From the NCBI GenBank assembly GCA_017883135.1, contig JADGOE010000012.1, positions 1 to 59,853 of the forward strand: a stretch of 59,853 nt of DNA, read 5' to 3'. This DNA comes from Acidimicrobiales bacterium (GTDB taxonomy: Bacteria > Actinomycetota > Acidimicrobiia > Acidimicrobiales > RAAP-2). The notes under the pieces were generated by a model that did no database searches, was not told the DNA's origin, and saw only the letters and a list, made by a program, of their open reading frames with translations. The position numbers and the translations under genes are program-made. Shown here in pieces: positions 14,191-19,425 of this stretch; the first letter of the stretch is position 1, and each line of letters begins with the position of its first letter.

Positions 14191-14937
14191 TCACCCTAGC
14201 GATTCGGGGCCCATCCGCTCGGCCGAGGGCGCCACGGGGCCACTGAGTCCGAGCAGCACCGCCCGCGCCTCCTCTACCTGTCCGGCCTCGACCATGGGGA
14301 CCACCTGGTGGTCGAGGACTGCCATCCAGTCGATCGACCCGGTGGGCCTGCCGGCGCGTTTCAGGGCCTGGCGGGCCTCGTCGAGCAGGGTAGCGACGGT
14401 TGCCAGGTCCGTCCCCAGTCCGGGGGCGATCCGCAGCCGAACCCACCGGGCCAGGGCCGGGCTGGAGCCACCGGTCGAGACGGCCACGGTCACCGGTCCG
14501 TCGCGATGGACCGAGGGGAGGCGGAAGTCCCCCGGGTTGGCACCGTCGGCGCAGTTCACCAGCACCCCGCCCGCCAGGGCATCGGCGACGACCAGGCGGT
14601 CGACCTCGGGCACGCCGGTGGCGGTGATCACCAACTGGTAGCCGCCTGCCTCTCCGGACCGGTAGGGGCGGTGCTCGAGGTCGAGCGTCGGACCTCGCTC
14701 CACGGGGCTGCCCGAGGTCGGGTGGTGCCCGGCATGCCGGTCGGCCTGGGTGGCGATGGCCCCGTCCATCCGGGGCGCCACCACGGTCACCTTTGCCCCG
14801 GACCGCAGGAGGCCGGCAACTCTGCGGGCGGCCACCGGGCCGCCCCCGACCACCAGGCAGCGGCGGTCGGCCACGGAAAGCACAACCGGGTAGTCGGGAT
14901 ACCCGCCCGAAGGGGGAAGGACAGGGTGGTGGTTCAT
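14191..14937 (-). CDS. Siroheme synthase N-terminal type: precorrin-2 dehydrogenase / sirohydrochlorin ferrochelatase
   Basis: It corresponds to the CysG-B/Met8 type enzyme that oxidises precorrin-2 and inserts iron to give siroheme. A Rossmann motif CLVVGGGPVAARRVAGLLRS follows an N-terminal strand, and LVITATGVPEVDR, LVNCADGANPGDFRLPSVHR and VAVSTGGSSPALARWVR match the family. The protein has 248 residues from ATG 14937, somewhat longer than the usual 200-220, and no methyltransferase domain is fused. The frame is open to 15027, but the extra residues are not family-like. It is divergent from cysH and the siroheme-dependent sulfite reductase, so it plainly supplies their cofactor. It ends 5 bp before the P450 start. 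Confidence 0.9.
   Translation of the reverse strand: MNHHPVLPPSGGYPDYPVVLSVADRRCLVVGGGPVAARRVAGLLRSGAKVTVVAPRMDGAIATQADRHAGHHPTSGSPVERGPTLDLEHRPYRSGEAGGYQLVITATGVPEVDRLVVADALAGGVLVNCADGANPGDFRLPSVHRDGPVTVAVSTGGSSPALARWVRLRIAPGLGTDLATVATLLDEARQALKRAGRPTGSIDWMAVLDHQVVPMVEAGQVEEARAVLLGLSGPVAPSAERMGPESLG
14193..14198 (-). promoter_or_regulatory. -10 hexamer TAGGGT of the P450 gene
   Basis: On the minus strand TAGGGT ends 7 nt before the P450 ATG and overlaps the tail of the siroheme gene. It suggests separate, leaderless expression. Confidence 0.5.
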
Positions 14938-15069
14938 CCGTTCGGGCCGGAGGTCATGGTCGAAACGGCGCCGGGTGGGGCATGGTCCATTCTTGCCCGA
15001 TCCCGATCCGGGGTGGGCCGGAGCCACCTCCCACCGGTATTCATATAAAACTTGATCGGCTTAGTCATG

Positions 15070-15287: not shown

Positions 15288-15947
15288 GTGGTGGCCCAGC
15301 TGCGACAAGAGATGGACGAGCGGTCGGCTGCCTTCGAGTCCACGCCCACGGAGCAGATCGTGGCGTGGGCCGTCGAACGGTTCGCCTCCAGGCTGGCCCT
15401 GTCGTGCTCCTTCCAAGAGGCGGTCCTCATCGACATTGCCGTCAAGGTCGACCCCCGCATCGAAGTGGTCTTCCTCGACACCGGCTCCCACTTCCCCGAG
15501 ACGCTCGAGTTCGTGGAGACGATCCGCTCCCGTTACGACCTGAACCTCACCGTCACCAAGCCGGTGGTCGGGGCCGAGGGCCATCCGTGCGGCACGGCCC
15601 AGTGCTGCGAGTTCCGCAAGGTGCGCCCCCTCAAGCGGGCCCTGGTCGGCAAGGACGCCTGGCTGACCGGCCTCAAGCGGGTCGACGCGCCGACCCGCCG
15701 CTCGGCACCCATCGTCGCCTACGACGACAGCTGGGCCAGGGTCAAGATCAACCCGATGGCCGCGTGGACCGACGAGGACATCGCCCGCTACGCGTCCGAG
15801 CACGGGCTCCCGCAGCATCCGCTGCTGTCCAAGGGCTACCTCTCCATCGGCTGCGCACCGACCACCCGCCCGGTGATCGAAGGGGAAGACCCCCGCGCCG
15901 GTCGCTGGTTCGACTCCGACAAGGTCGAGTGCGGGCTGCATCTCTAG
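15288..15947 (+). CDS. cysH: APS/PAPS reductase (adenylylsulfate reductase family)
   Basis: It reduces (phospho)adenylylsulfate to sulfite in assimilatory sulfate reduction. Visible are the nucleotide-binding SCSFQEAVLIDIAVKVD, LDTGSHFPETLEF, TGLKRVDAPTR and the C-terminal catalytic ECGLHL. The double cysteine of [4Fe-4S] APS reductases is present (QCCEFRKVRPL, Cys106-107), and the third cluster cysteine sits in SIGCAPTTRPV (Cys189). The fourth is Thr192 instead of Cys, an unusual intermediate between iron-sulfur and cluster-free forms. GTG 15288 has an excellent AGAGGAGG site 5 nt upstream and gives 219 residues; ATG 15219 and GTG 15186 are in-frame alternatives. The sulfite reductase starts 1 bp after its stop. 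Confidence 0.92.
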   Translation: MVAQLRQEMDERSAAFESTPTEQIVAWAVERFASRLALSCSFQEAVLIDIAVKVDPRIEVVFLDTGSHFPETLEFVETIRSRYDLNLTVTKPVVGAEGHPCGTAQCCEFRKVRPLKRALVGKDAWLTGLKRVDAPTRRSAPIVAYDDSWARVKINPMAAWTDEDIARYASEHGLPQHPLLSKGYLSIGCAPTTRPVIEGEDPRAGRWFDSDKVECGLHL

Positions 15948-15948
15948 C

Positions 15949-17742
15949 ATGGCGAAGGACAGGGACGAGCTCTACGGGATCTCCATCCGTGGGACCGACC
16001 GACCGATGCCGTTCGTCGATCCCTACCGGACCAAGGGCGAGCTCAACGAGATCGAGCGGTGGAAGCTCGAGAAGCACCCCTTGGAGATCGTCGATGCCAT
16101 CATCGACGTCTACTCCAAGGAAGGCCCCGCCGGCATCGCAGCGGTGCCGGGCGAGGTGGAGCGGCTGAAGTGGGCCGGGATCTACCCCCAAAAGCAGGGG
16201 GGCGACGCCTTCATGATGCGGGTGAAGGTCCCCGGCGGGCTCCTCACCGCACCCCAGATCCGCGAGATCGGCGTGGTCGCCGATGCCTTCGGGGAGGGTC
16301 CCGACGGGACCGAGAGCCGGATCTTCGGGTCGCGCTACGCCGACCTGACCACCCGCCAGACCGTGCAGATCCACTGGCTGCGCATCGAGGACATCCCCCG
16401 CATCTGGCGGCGGTTCGCGGCGGTCGGGCTGACTACCCTGCAGGCCTGCGGGGACTCTGCCCGCAACGTGCTGTGCTGCCCGGTGTCCGGCGTCGACGCC
16501 GGCGAGGCCTTCGACGCCCTGCCCATCGCCAGGGCCGTCTCTGAGTTCTTCACCGGCAACCGCGAGTACGCGAACCTGCCCCGGAAGTTCAAGATCTCGG
16601 TGACCGGGTGCGTGGAGGACTGCGCCCAGGCGGATATCAACGACATCGGCTTGTGGCCCGCCCGTGCCGACGACGGCGAGCTGGGCTTCAACTTGCTGGT
16701 CGGCGGCGGGCTCTCCGACGGCGAGCGGATGGCCTCGGACATCGACGTGTTCGTGCGCCAGAGCCAGGCCGTTGAGGTCACCCGGGCCGTCGCCCAGCTC
16801 TTCGGTGAGCTCGGCAACCGCGAGAACCGCGGTCTTGCCCGCATGCGCTACCTGGTCCAGGAGCTTGGCCCCGAACGGTTCCGCGAGGAGCTGGCCGCCC
16901 GGGCGCACTTCGATCTCCACCCCGCCTGCGAGCAGCTGACCCGCCGGTACCGGGGCGACCATGTCGGCGTGCACCCCCAGAAGGAGGACGGGCTGTTCTA
17001 CGTGGGCTGCTCGGTTCCGGTCGGCCGGATGAACGGGCTCGAGCTGGTGGAGGCGGCCCGCCTGGCCGAAACCTACGGGGACGGCACGGTGCGTCTCGGC
17101 ACCGATCAGAACATCACGTTCACCGGTGTGTCGGGGGACCGAGTCGACTCCATGGTCTCCGAGGATCTGCTGGTGAAGTACTCGCCCTCCCCGGGTCCGT
17201 TCACCCGCGGGGTCGTGGCCTGCACCGGGTCCGAGTTCTGCCGGTACGCCATCGTGGAGACCAAGGAGCGGGCGGTGAAGTGGGCTCGGTTCCTCGACGA
17301 GCAGTTGGCCGGCGAGCCGGTGGGCGCGGCTCCGGGCCCCGGTGGGCACTCGGGCCCCGGCGACGATGTCGGGATCATCCGAATGCACTTCTCGGGCTGC
17401 TCGGCCAGCTGCGCCCAGCCCCAGATCGCCGATATCGGCTTCCGGGGCGAGGTGGCCCATGTGGGGCACCACCTGGCGGAGGCGGTCGACATCGGCATGG
17501 GCGGGTCGCTCGGCATCGACGCCGGCTTCATCGACTGGATCGAGCGCGCACGACCGGTCAACGACGTGCCCGACGCCCTGTTGCGGGTGGTCCGCCGCTA
17601 TCAGGCGGAGCGACGTGAGGGGGAGCCGTTCTACAGCTGGGCACGGCGGGTGCCCAACGATGACCTGCGCCGCACCCTGGCCGAGGAGGGAACCGGCACG
17701 CCGGTCGCGCTGACGTCGAAGCCGAGGGAGCGGGTCGGATGA
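15949..17742 (+). CDS. Siroheme [4Fe-4S] sulfite reductase (NirA/SirA family)
   Basis: This catalytic enzyme of 597 residues carries out the six-electron reduction of sulfite to sulfide (the family also contains nitrite reductases). Two pseudo-symmetric ferredoxin-like halves are visible, with QTVQIHWLRIEDIP and GDSARNVLCCPVSG in the first. The coupled siroheme/iron-sulfur motif is CTGSEFC near residue 425 and CSASC near residue 484, followed by AQPQIADIGFRG. Its place between cysH and an FrhB-like gene, opposite siroheme synthase, argues for sulfite over nitrite. Such reductases normally take electrons from ferredoxin; here the coupled downstream gene suggests another donor. A Gly/Pro-rich insert lies near residue 465. 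Confidence 0.92.
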   Translation: MAKDRDELYGISIRGTDRPMPFVDPYRTKGELNEIERWKLEKHPLEIVDAIIDVYSKEGPAGIAAVPGEVERLKWAGIYPQKQGGDAFMMRVKVPGGLLTAPQIREIGVVADAFGEGPDGTESRIFGSRYADLTTRQTVQIHWLRIEDIPRIWRRFAAVGLTTLQACGDSARNVLCCPVSGVDAGEAFDALPIARAVSEFFTGNREYANLPRKFKISVTGCVEDCAQADINDIGLWPARADDGELGFNLLVGGGLSDGERMASDIDVFVRQSQAVEVTRAVAQLFGELGNRENRGLARMRYLVQELGPERFREELAARAHFDLHPACEQLTRRYRGDHVGVHPQKEDGLFYVGCSVPVGRMNGLELVEAARLAETYGDGTVRLGTDQNITFTGVSGDRVDSMVSEDLLVKYSPSPGPFTRGVVACTGSEFCRYAIVETKERAVKWARFLDEQLAGEPVGAAPGPGGHSGPGDDVGIIRMHFSGCSASCAQPQIADIGFRGEVAHVGHHLAEAVDIGMGGSLGIDAGFIDWIERARPVNDVPDALLRVVRRYQAERREGEPFYSWARRVPNDDLRRTLAEEGTGTPVALTSKPRERVG

Positions 17743-19019
17743 AGGCCTACCGGCTACGACGGGAGCTCAACGGCATCGAGGAGCCGCCGGGCAAGACCTG
17801 GTTCTGGGAGCTGCAGGCCGGGGTCATCGACGCCGACCGGTGCATCCGGTGCGGGACCTGCATCGCTGCCTGTCCGTCCAACTCGATCGGCATCGGAGAG
17901 GACACCGACCTGCCCGAGCTGGTCAAGATGTGCACCGGCTGCTCGCTGTGCTGGGACTTCTGTCCCCGAGGCGGGTTGCGCTACGAGGCCCTGTGGCCAC
18001 CGTCCACCGTAGGGGGCGAGACCGCCGAAGGTGGACCGAGCGTGGAGGGGGCCGTCGTGCGGTCCGACGCCTCGGACAGCTACTGGAAGATCACCGGCGG
18101 CCCCCCAGGCGACGGCCTGGGCGCGGTGATGGACTCGTACGCCGTCCGGGCGGGATCGCGTCCCGGGTGCGCGCAGGACGGCGGGGTGGTGACCGCGCTG
18201 CTGATCGCGGCCTTGGCCGGGGGCGAGATCGACGGTGCCTTGGTGACCAGGCCGAGCGAGGTTCCCGACGAGCCGTGGAAGGGTGTGGCCCACCTTGCCA
18301 CCACCGCCGAGGAGATCACCGACGCGGCCGGCAGCTACTACAACCAGACCATGGCCCTGGCCGAGTTGGACCTGTCCGGGTATGACCTGCCGGACAAGCC
18401 ACGGATCGCCGTGGTGGGCACACCCTGCGAGATCCAGGGCATCCGGGCGATGCAGTCCAGGCGTTGGCCGACCGGTGCCCACCGGATCGACTCGGTGGTG
18501 CTGACCATCGCCCTGCTCTGCACCAAGAGCTTCGACTACAAGGGCCTGATGCTCCAACTCCTGGCGGAGGACCGGTCGATCGACATCGCGCGGGTGAGCA
18601 AGGTCGATGTCATCCGGGGTCGGATGATCGTCGAGTACCGCGATGGCGAGGTGGCGGTCGACGAGGCCATCAAGAACTTCCACGGCGCCGCCCTCAAGGG
18701 CTGCGACGAGTGTGCGGACTTCCTCGGAAGGAGCGCAGACCTGTCGGTGGGGAGCGTGGGCTCCATGGACGGGTGGAGCAGTGTGCTGGTGCGTTCCGAG
18801 CGGGGCCGCCGGGCCCTCGACAACGCACGGGGCAGGCTCGACCTCCGTGAGCTCGACGACCCCGAGGCACTGGTCAGGTTGGACACGTTCGACAAGCGGA
18901 TCGCGTTGGACAGCCTGCACCGTGCGTTCGATCCGGATGCGCCTTTGTTCATCGAGTACGCCGAGCACCTGGCGGGCTACGAGGGCACCGACCGCGCCCC
19001 GGTGGTGCCCGACCGTTGA
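17739..19019 (+). CDS. FrhB/FpoF-like iron-sulfur F420 oxidoreductase subunit
   Basis: It has 426 residues: an N-terminal double [4Fe-4S] ferredoxin domain (CIRCGTCIAACP near 36-47 and CTGCSLCWDFCP near 66-77), then the FrhB N-terminal domain (GCAQDGGVVTALLIAALAGG) and FrhB C-terminal domain (VVGTPCEIQGIRAMQ, LLCTKSFDYKGL, KGCDECADFLGRSADLSVGS). The order equals that of FpoF and of the N-terminal half of archaeal F420-dependent sulfite reductase, where this module oxidises F420H2 with a flavin. Its ATG overlaps the sulfite reductase stop by 4 nt, so the two are probably translated together and may form a complex. Family assignment is firm; F420 use and electron transfer to the reductase are inference. 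Confidence 0.88.
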   Translation: MKAYRLRRELNGIEEPPGKTWFWELQAGVIDADRCIRCGTCIAACPSNSIGIGEDTDLPELVKMCTGCSLCWDFCPRGGLRYEALWPPSTVGGETAEGGPSVEGAVVRSDASDSYWKITGGPPGDGLGAVMDSYAVRAGSRPGCAQDGGVVTALLIAALAGGEIDGALVTRPSEVPDEPWKGVAHLATTAEEITDAAGSYYNQTMALAELDLSGYDLPDKPRIAVVGTPCEIQGIRAMQSRRWPTGAHRIDSVVLTIALLCTKSFDYKGLMLQLLAEDRSIDIARVSKVDVIRGRMIVEYRDGEVAVDEAIKNFHGAALKGCDECADFLGRSADLSVGSVGSMDGWSSVLVRSERGRRALDNARGRLDLRELDDPEALVRLDTFDKRIALDSLHRAFDPDAPLFIEYAEHLAGYEGTDRAPVVPDR

Positions 19020-19095: not shown

Positions 19096-19425
19096 ATGAC
19101 AGTCTTCGAGGTGGCCGGCGGGCCCCGATTGGAGCTCCCCGAAGAGCCGTTGGACATCAAGGCCGGGCTCCGCGGTGCGCTGTTCGACGGGCGGAACCTG
19201 CAGAACGGATCCAGCGACGACCTCTGCATCGGCCTGTGGTTGTGGGGGCGGTGGCAGCCGGCACTCGAGCCCAGCGGGTTCAGCCGCGAGGAGTTCGTCG
19301 ATGTGGTGCTGGGTTACCAGCGCGAGCTGTGGCTGTGGTTGGGCGGCGACCGGCAGTGGTCCCAGTTCGTCACCGGCCTGGCCGGAAGGGTGGTCCGGCG
19401 AATTCCGCTCGCCGCCGGTTCATGA
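19096..19425 (+). CDS. Conserved-looking hypothetical protein, 109 aa
   Basis: A soluble protein that I do not recognise. It begins MTVFEVAGGPRLELPEEPLD and has a Trp-rich middle (LCIGLWLWGRWQPALEPSGF, LWLWLGGDRQWSQF). It has no signal peptide, membrane segment or cysteine cluster. Codon use matches its neighbours, and the start is supported by a TAGGGT hexamer 7 nt upstream of the ATG. It lies 76 bp after the FrhB-like gene and 63 bp before a CMD-family gene on the same strand, so it could belong to either unit. The Trp content hints at ligand or protein binding, but no function can be assigned. Confidence 0.75.
   Translation: MTVFEVAGGPRLELPEEPLDIKAGLRGALFDGRNLQNGSSDDLCIGLWLWGRWQPALEPSGFSREEFVDVVLGYQRELWLWLGGDRQWSQFVTGLAGRVVRRIPLAAGS

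What the first reader, a model, noticed from the sequence alone, without database searches (positions are those of the whole stretch)
15288..19019. Sulfite reductase translationally coupled to an FrhB/FpoF-like protein: a possible split F420-dependent assimilatory sulfite reductase
Seen: cysH, then a siroheme sulfite reductase 1 bp after its stop, then a protein with two [4Fe-4S] motifs and FrhB N- and C-domains whose ATG overlaps the reductase stop by 4 nt. A siroheme synthase is divergent. Known: methanogen Fsr is a single chain with an F420H2-oxidising FpoF/FrhB-like half and a siroheme sulfite reductase half, while bacterial assimilatory enzymes of the NirA/SirA type use ferredoxin. Inference: this operon encodes the same two halves as separate coupled subunits, giving F420H2-driven sulfite reduction for cysteine synthesis in an actinobacterium, with the protein's own ferredoxin domain as the wire. 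I know of no description of this arrangement.
Basis: partly seen in the sequence, partly recalled or inferred. Interest (0 to 1): 0.82.

Follow-up and report, generated by a model that had tools for sequence, protein, structure and literature searches.

The report
Probable F420-dependent assimilatory sulfite reductase operon
An actinobacterium appears to make sulfide for cysteine with a two-protein enzyme driven by the unusual cofactor F420; this two-part design was proposed for salt-loving archaea in 2012 but apparently never tested, and here it is found in many bacteria, with an unknown third gene next to it.

Summary
In detail: cysH, a siroheme sulfite reductase (SIR) and an FrhB/Fsr-N-type flavoprotein with two N-terminal [4Fe-4S] motifs form one operon, SIR and FrhB overlapping by ATGA. 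In 78 of 80 loci from named genomes the SIR lies directly upstream (the other two are contig ends). In 395 class genomes, 12 carry FrhB orthologs; 11 are demonstrably paired. In Rubrobacter-type loci the pair lies between F420 biosynthesis genes (cof genes in all 7 loci with enough upstream DNA) and sulfate activation genes. Best reading: an F420H2-dependent assimilatory sulfite reductase. It is not undescribed: a 2012 paper proposed this two-subunit 'aFsr' in haloarchaea and listed a Rubrobacter xylanophilus ORF among its homologs; haloarchaeal pairs proved homologous here. Nor is it a split Fsr: the SIR is NirA/aSir-type, not the Dsr-like half of Fsr. New here, as far as my searches went: wide occurrence in Acidimicrobiia, F420-gene linkage in Rubrobacter, and a third gene (window 19096-19425) adjacent in 73 of 80 loci and, in 395 genomes, found in 9, all pair-bearing. 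No activity has been shown.

The parts
14191..15027 (-). precorrin-2 dehydrogenase (CysG N-terminal type), divergent; siroheme supply
   Evidence: TIGR01470 99 bits over cut-off 62.3; NAD_binding_7 + Sirohm_synth_M
15288..15947 (+). cysH, (P)APS reductase
   Evidence: PF01507 144 bits; NF002537 242 bits over cut-off; directly upstream of the SIR in 62 of the 78 named loci with a SIR and in 8 of 11 class pairs
15949..17742 (+). siroheme assimilatory sulfite reductase, NirA/aSir type (aFsr-alpha)
   Evidence: NIR_SIR domains; CX5C (425/431) and CX3C (484/488) in 85 of 85 rows, K213 and K215 in all 84 rows with a letter; one branch with the haloarchaeal SIRs, support 100/100
17739..19019 (+). Fsr-N/FpoF-type F420H2 dehydrogenase with N-terminal two-cluster ferredoxin domain (aFsr-beta)
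   Evidence: FrhB N and C domains; profile 145-179 bits to Fsr, FrhB, CODH-zeta and FwdI chains, 39.7 to HCAR
17739..17742 (+). 4-nt ATGA overlap of SIR stop and FrhB start
   Evidence: a start codon at the same 4-nt overlap in 65 of 78 relatives, in 57 at the aligned start
19096..19425 (+). unknown 109-aa protein, conserved third gene of the operon
   Evidence: adjacent downstream of FrhB in 73 of 80 loci; 9 of 395 class genomes, all 9 pair-bearing; no Pfam or NCBIfam match and no significant PDB match

Best explanation
The SIR and FrhB-like proteins are the two subunits of a bacterial F420H2-dependent assimilatory sulfite reductase (aFsr). CysH makes sulfite; [quoted passage not shown] Shown: gene order, conservation, apparent replacement of the usual SIR, invariant cofactor residues, F420 biosynthesis genes in the genome and beside the pair in Rubrobacter. 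Inferred: complex formation, F420 as donor, sulfite as substrate, the electron path, and any role of the third small protein.
For: Linkage: 78 of 80 named loci, other two at contig ends; 11 of 12 class genomes, the 12th unprovable. Replacement: 157 class genomes without the pair have another SIR-family match at E 1e-20; of the 12 with FrhB orthologs only G332 has a second one. None of 18 usual-SIR loci (about 3-4 kb each) holds an FrhB, while 10 of the 18 hold cysH. F420: FbiC and CofD over cut-off in the window's genome; FbiC over cut-off in 40 of 49 pair genomes examined (38 of the 80 named loci plus 11 class genomes, one genome twice); of the 9 misses 7 have CofD and an eighth CofE. cof genes upstream of cysH-SIR-FrhB in 7 of 12 Rubrobacter-type loci, which are all 7 with over 3 kb upstream of cysH (families verified on examples). 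Sulfur context: cysH directly upstream in 62 of 78; CysD in 33, CysN in 31, Sat in 11, CysC in 10 of 80 loci (each verified in one locus). The donor module scores 145-179 bits to Fsr, FrhB, 8RIU and 8RJA chains against 39.7 for HCAR. Lys at the position where plant nitrite reductase has Asn226 (PDB title of 3vlx).
Against: No biochemistry. G404 has a pair but none of FbiC, CofD, CofE over cut-off (a 2.3-Mb MAG of unstated completeness). FbiC is over cut-off in 336 of 395 class genomes, so co-occurrence there says little. Cof-gene linkage was seen only in one lineage; the window's own operon has none. The best family model for the SIR is 'ferredoxin--nitrite reductase' (404 bits, below its cut-off of 594). 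F420-using FdhB chains score only 57-64.5 bits with the same profile, so a lower score does not by itself exclude or prove F420 use. One haloarchaeal FrhB relative of 7 (L163) has no SIR in its locus, and one pair is beside nosZ. The FrhB model's ferredoxin domain was mostly under pLDDT 50, so docking to the SIR could not be judged.
Confidence: 0.78

Rival explanations
1. The SIR takes electrons from ordinary ferredoxin; the FrhB-like protein is an F420H2:ferredoxin oxidoreductase that merely recharges the ferredoxin pool for it.
For: The SIR fold and sequence are of the ferredoxin-dependent NirA/NiR type; the class also has a widespread paralogous FrhB, and 18 such loci have no SIR beside them.
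Against: Tight pairing and overlap, joint presence in the same genomes and a separate SIR branch that includes the haloarchaeal pairs point to a dedicated partner. The FrhB protein carries its own two-cluster domain.
Confidence: 0.12
2. The pair is an F420H2-dependent nitrite reductase, as FsrII of ANME-2c proved to be (PMC9295563, abstract and passages).
For: Best annotation is ferredoxin--nitrite reductase; group I Fsr reduces nitrite too (PMC10229431, Table 1); one haloarchaeal pair is beside nosZ.
Against: cysH directly upstream in 62 of 78; CysD in 33, CysN in 31, Sat in 11 and CysC in 10 of 80 loci; rhodanese fused to the SIR in two haloarchaea; Lys, not Asn, at the NiR position 226 in 84 of 84 rows with a letter.
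Confidence: 0.06
3. The FrhB-like protein does not use F420 at all; it is a ferredoxin-dependent flavoprotein like BciB or (by recall) HCAR.
For: BciB is in the FrhB family and uses ferredoxin (PMC4836224, passages); HCAR is also a fold match of the FrhB model.
Against: Profile scores 145-179 bits for nine F420-linked chains against 39.7 for HCAR, though F420-using FdhB chains score only 57-64.5; QDGG in 87 of 88 rows and a basic residue at 295 in 83 of 88; cof genes beside the pair in Rubrobacter.
Confidence: 0.04

Closest known systems
putative aFsr (aFsr-alpha + aFsr-beta) of haloarchaea, Susanti and Mukhopadhyay 2012 (PMC3448663)
   Same: Separate aSir-type siroheme SIR and Fsr-N-type F420H2 dehydrogenase; haloarchaeal plasmid pairs found here are 47-53% (SIR) and 43-54% (FrhB) identical to the window's.
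   Different: Bacterial host; cysH in the same operon; a third small gene not found in the 7 haloarchaeal loci; no rhodanese fusion (two haloarchaeal SIRs have one).
Fsr group I of Methanococcales (PDB 7NP8, 7NPA; PMC10229431)
   Same: F420H2-oxidising FrhB domain with N-terminal two-cluster ferredoxin domain feeding a siroheme SIR with CX5C-Xn-CX3C.
   Different: Fsr is one chain; its SIR half is Dsr-like in architecture with an inserted ferredoxin domain; TM-score of this SIR model to Fsr is 0.32.
F420-reducing CODH zeta subunit and FwdI of Ca. Ethanoperedens (PDB 8RIU, 8RJA; PMC11493965, passages)
   Same: FrhB-type F420 module with N-terminal ferredoxin domain as a separate subunit on another metalloenzyme; among the best matches in sequence and fold.
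   Different: Partner enzymes are CO and formylmethanofuran dehydrogenases, and electrons run towards F420.
NirA/SirA-type ferredoxin-dependent sulfite reductases, the usual SIR of the class
   Same: Same SIR superfamily, about 600 aa, two pseudo-symmetric halves.
   Different: 27-38% identical over the aligned part, separate in the tree, no FrhB in 18 loci of about 3-4 kb.

Membership tests
aFsr (PMC3448663) | aSir-type siroheme sulfite reductase subunit | tested here: met
   domains; fold NiR/NirA; CX5C and CX3C invariant
aFsr (PMC3448663) | Fsr-N homolog: FrhB plus two N-terminal ferredoxin-type [4Fe-4S] motifs | tested here: met
   eight cysteines present in every row with a letter there, 86 or 88 of 88
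aFsr (PMC3448663) | homologous to haloarchaeal pairs | tested here: met
   SIR in 6 of 7 haloarchaeal FrhB loci fetched; SIR branch 100/100. These plasmid loci are my own examples; the 2012 authors' ORFs were not fetched
aFsr (PMC3448663) | host makes F420 | tested here: met
   FbiC and CofD over cut-off in G000; genes only, cofactor not measured
aFsr (PMC3448663) | F420H2:sulfite oxidoreductase activity | not testable with these tools
   needs an enzyme assay; called putative in the two papers found that use the name
Fsr (group I/II) | single fused chain | tested here: not met
   two ORFs in the window; separate SIR stop and FrhB start in the 78 relatives with a SIR
Fsr (group I/II) | Fsr-C: Dsr-like SIR with inserted ferredoxin domain | tested here: not met
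   TM 0.32 to Fsr, 0.79 to tobacco NiR; no Fer4 domain in the SIR
Ferredoxin-dependent NirA/SirA | takes electrons from free ferredoxin | not testable with these tools
   needs an assay
HCAR/BciB branch of the FrhB family | sequence closer to HCAR than to F420 enzymes | tested here: not met
   39.7 bits to 5dqr; 145-179 bits to Fsr, FrhB, 8RIU and 8RJA chains; 57-64.5 to F420-using FdhB. BciB itself was not compared

The most novel reading that the evidence does not exclude
Actinobacteria possess a three-protein F420H2-dependent assimilatory sulfite reductase: an aSir-type SIR, an FpoF-like donor subunit and an uncharacterised ~110-aa protein (conserved LW..G.R.W.....GL.GR..RR) that is a structural or assembly part of the complex. 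In Rubrobacter the cofactor is made from the same gene cluster, so that sulfur assimilation would be a main use of F420 there, giving these bacteria an F420 enzyme of central metabolism.
Probability: 0.5. Interest if true: 0.68.

Novelty: new variant of a known kind. Interest (0 to 1): 0.55.

Why it matters
The 2021 review of F420 (PMC8498797, passages) lists F420-dependent sulfite reductase only from Methanobacteriales and Methanococcales. An F420-driven step in cysteine synthesis across Acidimicrobiia and Rubrobacteria would add a core-metabolic use of F420 in bacteria. An isolate, Rubrobacter taiwanensis, and Haloferax mediterranei carry the pair, so the 2012 prediction can be tested directly. 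It also warns that genes annotated 'ferredoxin--nitrite reductase' may be neither.

Tried and rejected
Split Fsr in the strict sense was rejected: the SIR half is not Fsr-C. F420 co-occurrence within the class was set aside as evidence because FbiC is over cut-off in 336 of 395 genomes. Extra cysteines in the SIR N-terminal half (C167, C177, C221, C225, present in all 84 rows with a letter) were considered as a relay cluster special to the pair; similar cysteines appear in the usual SIRs, so they are not special to it. An IMG/VR scan with the FrhB protein gave no relative. AlphaFold of the FrhB protein gave pLDDT 67 with a poor ferredoxin domain, so no distances or docking were attempted, and the tool takes one protein at a time. 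The PDB gave nothing significant for the third protein. My own errors: (protein 5) and the 'win' query read the third gene in the wrong frame; redone. On checking the draft I found that the absence of FrhB beside the usual SIRs had not been tested; one search tested it (0 of 18).
Full report
What is there. The coordinates are right. cysH (15288-15947) is followed after one base by a 597-aa NIR_SIR protein (15949-17742), whose stop overlaps the start of a 426-aa protein (17739-19019) with two ferredoxin-type [4Fe-4S] motifs and FrhB N- and C-terminal domains. A precorrin-2 dehydrogenase is divergent at 14191-15027.

Conservation in the class. A search of 395 class genomes with the FrhB protein matched 184 at E 1e-20. 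Twelve hold full-length orthologs (42-100% identity); the rest match over the FrhB part at about 32-38%. The same search with the SIR gave orthologs of 61-100% in 11 of the 12, adjacent to FrhB in all 11. In the twelfth, G364, a divergent FrhB lies at the start of one contig and a divergent SIR ends 97 bases from the end of another, so adjacency is possible but unproven. cysH is directly upstream in 8 of the 11. In all, 169 of 395 genomes have a SIR-family match at E 1e-20; 157 of these are without the pair, about 140 of them at 1e-37 or better by my count of the listing, the rest weaker and perhaps other enzymes. Of the 12 only G332 has a second match. Of 18 such other loci examined (about 3-4 kb each) none holds an FrhB and 10 hold cysH. 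The pair therefore seems to replace the usual SIR. The class is not named by the tool; contigs of five genomes of its pair set recur by length in the named collection under Acidimicrobiales, Acidimicrobiaceae or actinobacterium titles.

Conservation in named genomes. A scan of 84,980 species genomes with the alignment of the 12 orthologs confirmed 238 relatives, of which the tool kept 80: Acidimicrobiia and other actinobacterial MAGs, Rubrobacter and Rubrobacteraceae MAGs, and the isolate Rubrobacter taiwanensis; L093 is titled Acidobacteriota and L134 Saccharibacteria. SIR is directly upstream in 78 of 80; the other two lack the DNA. A start codon lies in a 4-nt overlap in 65 of 78, in 57 of them at the aligned start; the 12 Rubrobacter-type loci have a 1-nt overlap (8) or a gap of 0-3 bases (4) instead, and L100 a 1-nt overlap. 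cysH is directly upstream in 62 of 78, elsewhere in one (L130, other strand), and not found in 15, of which five have under 400 bases upstream.

Cofactor residues. Across 88 FrhB-like rows (80 loci, 7 haloarchaeal, window) the eight ferredoxin cysteines are invariant in rows with a letter, QDGG is kept in 87 of 88, and C230, C261, C322, C325 in 88 of 88. Their order and spacing resemble the FrhB cluster ligands C104, C134, C192, C195 given in PMC3591093 (passages), and QDGG is the FAD loop of PMC3930138 (passages). A basic residue at 295, which by my reading of the alignments falls in the IGKGK turn placed near F420 in PMC3591093, is kept in 83 of 88. In 85 SIR rows the CX5C and CX3C motifs are invariant; K213 and K215 are in all 84 rows with a letter. 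K215 aligns with the plant nitrite reductase Asn that is Lys in PDB 3vlx ('N226K'); that this position separates nitrite from sulfite enzymes is recalled, not from a call.

Which FrhB family. The 12-row profile scores 145-179 bits against nine F420-linked chains (8RIU, Fsr, 9TN7, 8RJA, FrhB), 57-64.5 against F420-using FdhB chains, and 39.7 against HCAR 5DQR. The predicted fold, whose N-terminal domain is unreliable, matches FrhB 4CI0 with TM 0.83 normalised to the target and HCAR with 0.49-0.53.

Which SIR family. The SIR model (pLDDT 85.5) matches tobacco nitrite reductase Nii3 (TM 0.79) and NirA (0.81) and scarcely Fsr (0.32). In a 50-row tree the 27 pair SIRs, 6 haloarchaeal SIRs and the divergent SIR of G364 form one side of a branch with support 100/100, apart from 16 other rows (L070 and L078 were dropped beforehand, and every third of the 78 named SIRs was used).

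F420. The window's genome has FbiC and CofD over cut-off. I examined 49 pair genomes (38 of the 80 named loci and 11 class genomes, one genome twice): 40 have FbiC over cut-off; of the nine misses seven have CofD, G403 has CofE, and G404 has none of the three. In the class FbiC is over cut-off in 336 of 395 anyway, so this is necessary but not telling. Gene order is more telling. Twelve loci are of Rubrobacter type (11 titled Rubrobacter or Rubrobacteraceae; L155 is titled only uncultured actinobacterium but groups with them in the SIR tree). cof genes lie upstream of cysH-SIR-FrhB in 7 of the 12: CofD in 5, CofC in 6, CofE in 7. In L141, L144, L148 and L155 they are next to cysH; in L147, L151 and L158 one or two genes lie between, including an MFS-type gene. 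These 7 are all those with more than 3 kb upstream of cysH; the other five contigs stop within 1.2 kb of cysH or do not reach it. Downstream come Sat (11 of 12), CysC (10) and a TauE-type gene (9). Assignments were checked on examples with NCBIfam. The loci are related, so seven is not seven independent events. Elsewhere CysD and CysN are in 33 and 31 loci, mostly divergent.

Third gene. The 109-aa protein of 19096-19425 has relatives directly downstream of FrhB in 73 of 80 loci; none was found in 7 haloarchaeal loci, 18 usual-SIR loci or 18 FrhB-paralog loci (the last two sets reach only about 1.5 kb beyond the match). In 395 class genomes it occurs in 9, all pair-bearing. It has no Pfam or NCBIfam match and no significant PDB match. 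It was not found beside the pairs of G063, G099 and G364 nor in L117, L122, L132-L134, L146 and L157 (L117 and L134 are G063 and G099 again), so it is not indispensable.

What was known. PMC3448663 (sections 11 and 13 read; passages elsewhere; figures not seen) proposed in 2012 a putative 'aFsr' of haloarchaea with an aSir-type subunit and an Fsr-N-type subunit; a supplementary legend names Rxyl_0964 of Rubrobacter xylanophilus and Thermobaculum terrenum among the homologs. PMC9295563 (passages) repeats aFsr-beta as putative. A search for aFsr with sulfite reductase and F420 returned only these two papers; phrase variants the same two. Rubrobacter with F420 gave ten papers, of which I opened these two and PMC12060686 (the last holds F420 only in a reference). 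Acidimicrobi- with F420 and sulfite reductase gave five; I opened passages of PMC12008989 only, with nothing on this. The held library lacks most subscription journals, and I made no search for the third gene. A search of the plasmid collection gave 8 records, 7 haloarchaeal and one weak bacterial match not fetched. Of the 7, SIR is adjacent in 6: annotated 'ferredoxin--nitrite reductase' in four and rhodanese-like (SIR with rhodanese domains) in two; L163 has none.

Verdict. An aFsr-type F420H2-dependent assimilatory sulfite reductase is the best reading (0.78). It is a bacterial variant of a proposed but, as far as I could see, untested kind, with new support from F420 gene linkage and a new associated gene.

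Noticed in passing
window 19096-19425: Unknown small protein family found downstream of the SIR-FrhB pair (9 occurrences in 395 class genomes, all pair-bearing; 73 of 80 named loci). No Pfam or NCBIfam match.
   Followed up: partly
L048 8136-9266 (-), own genome G000:C110:38219-38914: A second FrhB-type protein (376 aa, N-terminal ferredoxin-type motifs, best PDB match 8RIU) next to a ThiC-like ORF (by eye); relatives at about 32-38% identity are widespread in the class, and 18 such loci hold no SIR. Candidate F420:ferredoxin oxidoreductase.
   Followed up: partly
L164 2302-4842 and L165 2544-4943: Two haloarchaeal plasmid SIRs of the pair are fused to rhodanese domains; L165 lies beside nosZ.
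   Followed up: partly
window SIR residues C167, C177, C221, C225: Four cysteines in the N-terminal half of the SIR are present in all 84 rows with a letter, and similar ones occur in the class's usual SIRs; they might bind a second cluster.
   Followed up: no
L134 (CAJCJA010000043.1): A contig titled Candidatus Saccharibacteria carries the pair and has the same length and coordinates as a contig of G099, in the window's own family: probably a mislabelled record.
   Followed up: partly
own genome G000:C7:71042-71950: A second CofD-like gene (221 bits, below the family cut-off of 257.45) besides the CofD over cut-off.
   Followed up: no
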